From assembly GCA_009760855.2 (NCBI GenBank), contig WPIO01000124.1, positions 15,001 through 79,000 of the forward strand: a DNA stretch of 64,000 nt, written 5' to 3'. Positions 45,001-48,000 of the stretch are shown here, piece after piece. The number at the start of each line of letters is the position of its first letter. The stretch's first letter is position 1. The notes under the pieces were generated by a model, which saw nothing but the letters and a program-made list of their open reading frames with translations, was not told the origin of the DNA and did not search any database. Both the position numbers and the translations under genes were made by a program. Source of the stretch: Cristatella mucedo. Its lineage: Eukaryota; Bryozoa; Phylactolaemata; Cristatellidae.

Positions 45001-48000
45001 CCCAAGAAGTACACTAAGGTGCCCTGCAGCGCCTGCTGCCGTCATGCGAGCTGCAGTGTGCATCCACTATTTCTCCCGCCCCCAAGCTTCATCCGACTGC
45101 CCGCGTCCTTCTGGCTGCCTCAAGCGACGGCCTCTCCGCAGTGTTTTCACTTGCTGACGGGGTACAGCGTTCGTCTTAGTGGGTCGAGGAGAAGATGCCC
45201 AAGGAGACGAATCCGCCCATCAAAATTGACAGCAAAAATCAATTTGCTCCAATCGGTAGCAATCCCAAAGAGATGAAGCAAGTTTTCAAGGCCGTAAGTC
45301 GGCAAGGTGCCGCCGGCCGTTTGTTGGCATGCCGTGTGTCGGACAGGCTTGTTAGCTCGTGTCTCGGATGGTGTCTGCAACTTTGACACGCGGTCTTGTC
45401 TTTCTCCCTTTACCCACAGCTGAGCTGAGCTGCCGGCATGCCCTTGTTCCAGCTACAGCACCGCTGCCCGGGAGCGTAAGTGGCCGTGTGACGGTTGAGT
45501 GGTTTGGGCCTGGTGCTCTCGCACACTCCTCTTCGAGTCTCACCGCCGGAATTCGAGCTGATGGCTTTGAAAGAGCAATCCAATGTCTTCAAACCAGTGC
45601 ACTTTGCCACAGCACGTAGCCGTGTCACACACACACACACACACACACACACACACACACACACACACACACACACACACACACACACACACACACACAC
45701 GTTTGCTCGCCTGCCGAAGCGTTTGCTCGCCTGCCGAAGCGGCACGGCTCGTTGCTCTCGCGCCGTCAGCCGGTCGCGCTGGCTGGCTGCCACGACGAGA
45801 GATTTAGCATGTGCACGTGCATGGCGTGGAGTGCTGGCGATCGCTTGCAGTGGGTGCCCGACGCCGACTCGAGGCAGGCGGCGCCCATCAAGGTGCTCAA
45901 CGCCAATCAGTTCGCACCTCAAGGAGCCAATCCCAACGAGTTCAGGCAAGCTCAGAAGCAAGTAAGAAACGTCGTCCGCATGCACATGCGATCGGCCGCG
46001 CACGCTGCACATGCATGGGACCGAGTCTTTCGGCGAATAGGAGTGCTCGCATGCGGTTGGCAGTGCTGCTCAACATGCATGTCTGTCGCTAGCGTTTTTC
46101 CCCGTTTTTTGTGTATTTCTATCTGCAAGCTCGTGTGTGCGCAACTCAGCTGCTGAGGCACGGTGCAGCAGCTGCCGATCTGGTCGATGCTGGCCCACGT
46201 GGCAGTGCCTTGAGATGGAGAGCTAACAGTAGGGGTGCACTTGCAGATCAAAGAGGTTTATTACAAGGACAAGGTGACTGCCGGTCCGCAGTCGAAGATC
46301 TTGGAGGGTGCAACGTGGGACGACAGCAAGATCGCCGTGAGTCTCTGCTGATCGACCTTGTGTGCTGCTATCGGCTGCATTTCACTCGAGCTTGCCCCGG
46401 GGGCCCAAGCAGCCAAGCGGCTGCTCTGTGGGGGGGGGTAGCAGCTTGAGCGAAAAAGCACCCGTTTGTCGAAAAGTCTGTCTCTTCACATCGCATGCAG
46501 GCATTTAATCATTTGCCTCGTTTCAACTCGGCTCGACTTGTTCGCCCAGAAGTAAGAGTAGTGGTAGAATGCAGTAGGAAGAATGTAGTCTTGATTGTTA
46601 AATCGATTGGAGTACCGCAGTAGTAGCCCAGGTGTGGGCCACTAACGATCCCGCTCGTAGGCAGATTCTTGTTCGACGTTGTGGGGTCCTACGGCAGGTG
46701 GCTTCCAGTCGCTTTGTGTTTAAAGGAAAAGTAAACTCGATCGCCTCTCTTGATCAAGCTATCCGTGCCCATGAAGTTGGTGGGTGGGTGGCTGGAGGAT
46801 GAGAGGGACGAGGCCATCATCGGTATCATTTTGCTGATGGAGCGTCTCGGAGGTGGGGGGTTGCCCTTTTCTATCGACAGTCGACCGAACGTAGATGCAG
46901 CTGTTGGATGATCTGAGCTCTCTGTCCACCATTCCTCGGATCTCTTAGTGAACATGGATGCTTGTGTCGTGAGTGTGAGGCAGCGAAATCTGCACGGTGC
47001 CTCCGAATCGATGCCCGAACACTTTGCTACCAAGCGCCTTTGCGACGCCTCCTGGTGGGGGAGGGAATGGGATTGTAGATAGTGATCCCTCAGCATGGAG
47101 GCCACAGCCTGGAAAATCGCTCGATTCGCATACATCACTGAGGAAGAACTCTGCAGCAGCTGCTCTGAACGAGAGGGTGTGTCTTCTTAGCACGTCCTAT
47201 CGTCCCAATCGCATTGACCGATCGCTGCAGCCGGTCATACAGCGCCCGCCTGCTGACTCGCTCGTTTGAGGCCATCGTGCCCCCTCCCTCCTCATTTCCG
47301 CCACCGCTGCACGTCGCCACCGTCTGTCGTTGGCACAGGACGCCGGCAGGAGTATGACCGGCGATGCCGTTATCGTCGTCGGCGCTGCCAGCAAGGGCAT
47401 CATAAAGAAAGACCACCAGCATAATGCTGTAGTGTTCCGTCAGCAGTACGGAGCAAACCCATTCGGCGCAATGACAGACGACGAGCTCACACAGTACAAG
47501 AAAGAGGTCGAGCGGAAGCAGCTGCAGTCAAGCGTCAGCAGCGAGCCGCCGGCGCTCTCGCCAGGTACGTGCCCCTGGCGTCGACAAGGTGGCGTGCCAC
47601 CGCATTTAGGCAGCTGCCATGGCCAGCCATGGCAGCGCAGCAGTGGCAAACGTTGCCACAGCGAGCTGCTCGAAGCGGCTTCTGCTCTGCCGTCTTTGCT
47701 TGCTACTTGTCGCCACCATGCACGACTCGAATAGAGCTGCACTTGACCTGATGTTTGGTCTCTGCAGGGTATACTGCCTTTCTTTCGCATAGGAAACTGC
47801 ACCTCGGTGGCCTGTCGGCCCGGCGTAATAGTGCTTACGTTATCGTGTGTGTGTGTGTGTGTGTGTGTGTGTGTGTGTGTGTGTGTGTGTGTGTGTGTGT
47901 GTGTGTGTGTGTGTGTGCGTGTGTGCGTGTGTGTGTGTGTGCTCGCAGTATCCATGTAACTCCGGAAAACCACACGAAGACTAAGTAGGTGTTGCAGTGG

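What the first reader, a model, noticed from the sequence alone, without database searches (positions are those of the whole stretch)
45180..45961. Tandemly duplicated neck exon in adducin: candidate mutually exclusive exons
Exons 45180-45293 and 45851-45961 both start WV, both carry APxGxNPxE, share 16 of 37 aligned residues, and have phase 0 at both ends between the same neighbours (exon 10 and exon 12). Fly hts and human adducins, as I know them, have one such segment. Swapping would change the neck next to the AGPQS segment, the part needed for oligomer and spectrin-actin contacts. The 557-nt spacing is too long for simple steric exclusion, so another mechanism or double inclusion is possible.
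Basis: partly seen in the sequence, partly recalled or inferred. Interest (0 to 1): 0.82.

Follow-up and report, generated by a model that had tools for sequence, protein, structure and literature searches.

The report
Duplicated adducin exon, likely either-or spliced
A gene for adducin, a protein that ties the cell skeleton to the membrane, carries two old, divergent versions of one short exon side by side, so the animal can probably make two forms of the protein that differ in one regulatory stretch; no RNA data were available to prove it.

Summary
In detail: exon A (45180-45293, 38 aa) and exon B (45851-45961, 37 aa) are homologous, both AG|...|GT, both phase 0-0, 16 of 37 residues identical, score 76 against a shuffle maximum of 42 in 5000. 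No third copy was found in the window. A WebScipio-like scan scores the pair 0.37-0.39; the other 11 modelled exons have no candidate above 0. The gene has an adducin head and a MARCKS-like tail exon. Exons resemble each other, flanking introns do not. Each copy keeps most positions shared with a solved beta-adducin (8 of 9, 8 of 10); free drift of either fits poorly. So both exons are probably real, old and maintained. Mutual exclusion is likely but not shown: all four splice combinations stay in frame, 557-nt spacing speaks against steric exclusion, no RNA docking signal was seen, and neither RNA nor another animal genome could be searched. The segment matches adducin-1 from W472, including positions 480/481, Rho-kinase/PKA sites in human, so 'neck-tail border' is safer than 'neck'. 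Verdict: new member of a known kind, tandem duplicated exons; not seen reported for adducin in the searches made.

The parts
45180..45293 (+). Exon A (11a), 38 codons, phase 0-0, [38 protein letters not shown]
45851..45961 (+). Exon B (11b), 37 codons, phase 0-0, [37 protein letters not shown]
44895..45018 (+). Exon 10, upstream neighbour, ends phase 0 with donor AAG|GTGCCC (start chosen to fit the phase of exon 9; an AG before 44878 is an alternative)
46247..46336 (+). Exon 12, downstream neighbour, [30 protein letters not shown], starts phase 0; most pyrimidine-poor acceptor of the 13 modelled exons
45294..45850 (+). Intron between A and B (557 nt) with a (CA)n array at 45626-45700 and 4 GCATG
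45962..46246 (+). Intron after B (285 nt) with 4 GCATG, 2 of them within TGCATG (GCATG at 45978, 46013, 46049, 46077): candidate, unproved RBFOX sites
45807..45823 (+). Two GCATG (45807, 45819) shortly upstream of exon B, one within TGCATG
40804..41759 (+). Adducin aldolase-like head exons E5 (40804-41034), E6 (41260-41403), E7 (41661-41759)
   Evidence: Pfam Aldolase_II 6.9e-40 on the joined exon peptides
41904..42948 (+). Exons E8 (41904-42113) and E9 (42818-42948) of the same gene
47339..47564 (+). Exon 13
58107..58235 (+). Putative last coding exon with MARCKS-like basic tail, [28 protein letters not shown]...AV*; its splicing to exon 13 was not modelled
   Evidence: likeness judged by eye

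Best explanation
One 111-114-nt coding exon of an adducin gene was duplicated in tandem long ago. Both copies have been kept as working exons, and most transcripts contain one or the other, giving two adducins that differ in a 37/38-residue stretch between the WLNTPN segment and the AGPQS segment. Shown here: the duplication, intact frames and splice dinucleotides, signs of constraint on both copies, and the adducin context. Inferred: that the choice is alternative and mostly exclusive; that it is made by trans-acting splicing factors acting on two rather weak exons (a possible (U)GCAUG/RBFOX cluster around exon B) and not by steric, U2/U12 or frame-shift exclusion; and that the swap changes how the region matching the human Rho-kinase/PKA sites T480/S481 is regulated, so that actin and spectrin binding would be tuned by cell type while head, core neck and MARCKS tail stay the same.
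For: Homology, equal phase, near-equal length; relative score 0.37-0.39 against a published cut-off of 0.15 (cut-off from PMC3228551 passages), with no positive candidate for the other 11 modelled exons. Old: third positions 18 of 37 identical; exon DNAs alike, flanking 150 nt on either side at chance. Both constrained: where A equals the beta-adducin chain 8iah_3 (9 of 31 columns) B keeps 8, against 6 of 22 elsewhere, Fisher p 0.003; B drifting freely while keeping AG/GT, no stop and 8 of 9: 1 of 4000 (0.00025); A drifting, 8 of 10: 13 of 4000 (0.003). Each copy alone keeps the shared positions, which fits use as the sole copy. B has the weakest and A the third weakest U1 pairing of 13 donors; acceptor pyrimidine content is 0.47 (B) and 0.53 (A, tied with E8), only exon 12 (0.37) lower. 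Precedent: the fly Cacophony exon pair conserves 16 of 39 residues and is an old substitution event (PMC9741552 passages).
Against: No RNA evidence. A, B, A+B and neither are all open and in frame, so the frame does not enforce exclusion, and 557 nt allows double inclusion. Weak donors are not special to A and B: six other donors lie between -4.6 and -6.0 kcal/mol, E5 (-4.6) almost as weak as B (-4.5). Intron-intron pairing is no better than shuffles (z 0.45, 0.07, 1.14). The RBFOX idea is weak: after B the reverse complement CATGC (5; 3 of 1000 shuffles reach it) is at least as enriched as GCATG (4; 33 of 1000); only in the A-B intron is GCATG (4; 9 of 1000) ahead of CATGC (2; 317 of 1000); and the motif was chosen after looking. 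Open frame plus identity alone do not exclude drift of one copy (P 0.09-0.11). In human, 1,399 of 6,541 candidates were verified (PMC5740500 passages).
Confidence: 0.6

Rival explanations
1. Both exons are constitutive neighbours: every transcript contains A then B, so this adducin simply has the segment twice.
For: Both phase 0, A+B joins in frame without stop, spacing is normal. Such neighbours exist: 90 of 16,180 exon entries, in 6 of 1,705 fly X-chromosome genes (PMC3228551 section 13).
Against: Each copy separately keeps residues shared with 8iah_3 (8 of 9 and 8 of 10), where a doubled segment could free one copy; rather weak splice sites at both; two solved adducin chains show one passing stretch each.
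Confidence: 0.2
2. The pair is alternatively but not exclusively spliced: A, B, both or neither appear, as cassette exons, or one copy is used rarely or in one tissue only.
For: All four products are in frame; no hard exclusion mechanism found; rather weak sites on A, B and exon 12.
Against: Similar constraint on both copies argues against one being nearly unused.
Confidence: 0.17
3. One copy is a decaying, unspliced pseudo-exon.
For: With the other copy constrained, an open frame with 16 or more identities arises in 9-11% of neutral simulations, 1500 for each direction.
Against: Adding kept AG/GT and kept shared residues brings this to 1 of 4000 (B drifting) and 13 of 4000 (A drifting) (simple substitution model, no indels, one outgroup chain); the only length difference is one whole codon.
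Confidence: 0.03

Closest known systems
Tandem duplicated exon substitution events / mutually exclusive exon pairs (e.g. fly Cacophony; C. elegans egl-15 5A/5B and unc-32 7a/7b; Dscam)
   Same: Adjacent homologous internal exons, same phase and near-equal length; divergence as in Cacophony (16 of 39 conserved there, 16 of 37 here); UGCAUG near one member as in egl-15 and unc-32.
   Different: Exclusivity unproved here; no docking-selector pairing found; no adducin case seen in the searches made.
Mammalian adducin alternative splicing (ADD3a/ADD3b, cassette exon)
   Same: Alternative exon use in an adducin gene.
   Different: The reported mammalian event includes or skips one exon (PMC5976920 passages); here two homologous exons lie side by side.
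Adducin segment from W472 in solved chains 8iah_0 (Adducin 1) and 8iah_3 (Beta-adducin)
   Same: Homologous to A and B; in 8iah_3 PIRI..NQF.P...P.E, then IRE..AGPQS in both chains.
   Different: One passing stretch in each solved chain; two exon copies in this gene. That these chains come from a vertebrate (pig) is recalled, not in the call output.

Membership tests
Mutually exclusive exon cluster (criteria of PMC3228551) | Similar length (within 20 aa) | tested here: met
   38 and 37 aa
Mutually exclusive exon cluster (criteria of PMC3228551) | Compatible splice sites and same reading frame | tested here: met
   AG/GT and phase 0-0 for both
Mutually exclusive exon cluster (criteria of PMC3228551) | Sequence similarity, relative score at least 15% | tested here: met
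   37-39% (BLOSUM62 with gap costs 11/1, which may differ from WebScipio's)
Mutually exclusive exon cluster (criteria of PMC3228551) | Internal, neighbouring, flanked by further exons | tested here: met
   Exon 10 before, exon 12 after, frame continuous
[quoted passage not shown]
   No RNA data; all four combinations are in frame
Steric exclusion subtype | Intron between the exons too short to be spliced | tested here: not met
   557 nt; the gene model has introns of 100 and 144 nt elsewhere
U2/U12 incompatibility subtype | Mixed major and minor spliceosome sites | tested here: not met
   Donors GTAAGT and GTAAGA, acceptors AG; judged by eye against the U12 consensus as recalled
Frame-shift / NMD-enforced subtype | Double inclusion shifts the frame | tested here: not met
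   A+B joins in frame, 0 stops through exon 13
Competing RNA structure subtype | Docking and selector sequences pairing better than chance | tested here: inconclusive
   Intron duplexes z 0.45, 0.07, 1.14 against 60 shuffles each; one genome only, no comparative test
Adducin | Class II aldolase-like head | tested here: met
   PF00596 6.9e-40
Adducin | Homology to solved adducins after the head, AGPQS segment | tested here: met
   8iah_3 E 1e-12, 8iah_0 E 4e-10
Adducin | MARCKS-like basic C-terminus | tested here: met
   58107-58235, by eye; the splicing from exon 13 to it was not modelled

The most novel reading that the evidence does not exclude
Adducin has, in some animal lineage, an old exon-swap switch at its neck-tail border, exchanging the stretch that carries Rho-kinase/PKA sites in human adducin-1, so that one gene makes two differently regulated spectrin-actin capping proteins.
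Probability: 0.35. Interest if true: 0.6.

Novelty: new member of a known kind. Interest (0 to 1): 0.45.

Why it matters
Adducin sits at spectrin-actin junctions and caps and recruits under kinase control. An exon pair that swaps the stretch around the human 480/481 phosphosites would let one gene make two differently regulated adducins, and the two natural versions would be a ready-made test of what this poorly understood segment does. It would also add a cytoskeletal linker to the genes with old tandem exon pairs.

Tried and rejected
Third copy of the exon: none found in six frames. Duplicates of the other 11 modelled exons: none above 0. In one search the E5 start was mislocated, so its E4 and E5 rows are void; both were redone. 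One search failed on a wrong donor string and was redone.

Intron similarity: the repeat finder saw only short repeats of 20 nt or less, but its threshold (about 65%) also misses A/B themselves, so it is no evidence either way; the later test with an exon control is the one used.

RNA-structure control: an inverted repeat (21 nt, 76% complementary) flanks exon B, and one fold of 45795-45995 gave z -2.5, 2 of 200 shuffles; a near-identical cut with fewer shuffles gave z -1.56, within the spread of the 13 exons (-1.93 to 1.11), and intron-intron duplexes were at chance. Not claimed.

RBFOX sites: highest GCATG count in the 285 nt after an exon among the 13 (B 4, next A 2), but 1.9% of all such windows reach 4, in 8 places including this one, and after B the reverse complement is at least as enriched. 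A lead only.

Related genomes: the search for related loci with the A/B alignment in genome contigs (54 pattern matches, 0 confirmed) and viral contigs (70, 0 confirmed); by their descriptions these hold prokaryote and virus contigs. Which copy is ancestral: undecided; A is slightly nearer the solved chains (27.3 and 26.5 bits against 24.3 and 23.3, exon 12 included in each query). Organism not identified; no tRNA and no Rfam match in the window. Pfam on five other ORFs: no family; the query of B with exons 12-13 had one weak match (Styelin, 0.0074, under its cut-off).

Papers. Searches: (16 papers held both terms, 16 listed, none opened; 141, 25 listed; 292, 15 listed; 9 listed; 8, 7 listed; 1; 227, 10 listed; 1; 2), 61 (978, 12 listed). 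Passages only: PMC12599920, PMC5976920, PMC5740500, PMC6071210, PMC12386066, PMC9741552, PMC3585155, PMC3411243, PMC10467427, PMC4731495, PMC5564661, PMC6073210. PMC3228551: passages and sections 13 and 14. PMC9013439: abstract, outline and section 5. The rest: listings with abstract starts. Nothing I saw reports such a duplicated exon in adducin or hts; most listed papers were not opened.

After the filing check I added, corrected the intron claim, the account of weak donors and of GCATG against CATGC, and the marking of what is recalled.

Full report
What is there. On the + strand the window holds an adducin gene, modelled from 35375 to 47564 with a putative last coding exon ending at 58235. 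Thirteen exons, A and B included, were placed by reading frame and AG/GT. Exons E5-E7 joined match Pfam Aldolase_II at 6.9e-40, the region after the head matches two solved chains, 8iah_3 (Beta-adducin) and 8iah_0 (Adducin 1), at 1e-12 and 4e-10, and 58107-58235 encodes a MARCKS-like basic tail (judged by eye). The frame runs open from E4 through A to E13. Coding exons between 47564 and 58107 were not modelled.

The duplication. Between exon 10 and exon 12 lie two homologous exons, A (45180-45293) and B (45851-45961). Both begin AG|TGG, end before GT, are phase 0 at both ends, and differ by one codon. They share 16 of 37 residues; the alignment score of 76 compares with 13.7 +- 5.3 for 5000 shuffles, maximum 42. 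No third copy was found in the window. In a scan modelled on the published WebScipio criteria (length within 20 aa, same phase, splice sites, open frame; cut-off 15%; PMC3228551 passages), A and B find each other at 37-39%. Of the other 11 modelled exons, 10 have a best candidate of -14% to -1% and one has none (for E2 and E13 only one neighbouring intron was scanned).

Age and constraint. The nucleotides agree at 64 of 111 positions, third positions at 18 of 37. Under one local scoring scheme the exons are alike (0 of 1000 shuffles as good) but the 150 nt upstream (136 of 1000) and downstream (504 of 1000) are not. So this is neither an assembly artefact nor a fresh copy. If both copies drifted freely to the observed overall distance, 0.7% of 4000 simulations reached 16 identities; to the third-position distance, none did. 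If one copy is constrained and the other drifts, an open frame with 16 identities is not rare (9-11%); this is the result least favourable to my reading. Keeping also the splice dinucleotides and the residues shared with chain 8iah_3 happened in 1 of 4000 (B drifting) and 13 of 4000 (A drifting) simulations. B keeps 8 of the 9 positions where A equals that chain, against 6 of 22 elsewhere (Fisher p 0.003). The simulations use a simple substitution model without indels and one outgroup chain.

Splicing. Exclusion is not hard-wired: the 557-nt spacing is ample, the sites look major-spliceosome, and A, B, A+B and neither all stay in frame. Competing RNA structures were not seen. The splice sites are on the weak side: U1 pairing of the B donor is the weakest and of the A donor the third weakest of 13; acceptor pyrimidine content is 0.37 (exon 12), 0.47 (B) and 0.53 (A, tied with E8), the lowest of 13; the exon 10 donor is GTGCCC. 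But six other donors lie between -4.6 and -6.0 kcal/mol, and head exon E5 is nearly as weak as B, so this does not set the pair apart; no trained splice model was used. GCATG motifs cluster around exon B: two shortly upstream, four within 120 nt downstream. In C. elegans, RBFOX proteins choose between mutually exclusive exons of egl-15 and unc-32 through UGCAUG (PMC3585155 passages). Here the reverse complement is at least as enriched after B (5, 3 of 1000 shuffles, against 4, 33 of 1000), though not in the A-B intron (2, 317 of 1000, against 4, 9 of 1000), so the cluster may be mere composition.

How likely is exclusivity. In a fly X-chromosome survey, features like these were shared by 90 of 16,180 non-exclusive exon entries (6 of 1,705 genes), while 26 of 65 predicted internal exons were already annotated as exclusive (PMC3228551 sections 13 and 14). 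In human, 1,399 of 6,541 candidates were verified (PMC5740500 passages). Diverged but constrained pairs are known among true substitution events; the fly Cacophony pair conserves 16 of 39 residues (PMC9741552 passages). I put mostly exclusive use at 0.6; this is a judgement, not a computed value.

What the swap would change. On chain 8iah_0 as printed, numbering starts at T429; S436, T445 and G460 then fall on their published human numbers, the segment starts at W472, position 480 is A and 481 is S. In human ADD1, T445 and T480 are Rho-kinase sites and S481 a PKA site (PMC12386066 passages), and Rho-kinase phosphorylation is reported to enhance actin binding and spectrin recruitment (PMC5976920 and PMC5564661 passages). 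A and B differ most in the stretch before PIK, where that region aligns. Whether either copy is phosphorylated is unknown. As I recall, the oligomerisation neck ends near residue 430 in mammals, and a fly study removes the tail with a construct ending at Hts 450 (PMC10467427 passages), so 'neck-tail border' is a safer name than 'neck'.

What is missing. No RNA and no other animal genome could be reached: the own-genome search did not complete in 15 tries, and the prokaryote and viral collections gave nothing. No paper on a duplicated exon of this kind in adducin or hts turned up, which search openly licensed PMC papers and were mostly seen as listings; species annotations outside that library may already hold both exons.

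Noticed in passing
45626-45700 and 47845-47941: A (CA)n array (37.5 copies) in the A-B intron and a (GT)n array (48.5 copies) downstream of exon 13 are complementary and could pair in the pre-mRNA, looping out B, exon 12 and exon 13.
   Followed up: no
45807-45827 and 45969-45989: Imperfect inverted repeat (21 nt, 76% complementary) closely flanking exon B; fold significance depends on the cut.
   Followed up: partly
7949-8443 (-), 36666-36869 (+), 1669-2070 (-): ORFs with similar peptide strings (such as [16 protein letters not shown]) that resemble the C-terminal end of a non-LTR retrotransposon reverse transcriptase; the resemblance is recalled, and Pfam gave no hit for 7949-8443.
   Followed up: partly
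45700-45741: Perfect 20-nt tandem repeat directly after the (CA)n array.
   Followed up: no
45019-45024: Exon 10 donor AAG|GTGCCC departs from the usual donor consensus at +4 to +6.
   Followed up: partly
3939-4137, 21038-21166, 28663-28739, 34332-34415, 53905-54017: Long dinucleotide arrays (TA/AT, GT) recur across the window, most of them nearly perfect.
   Followed up: no
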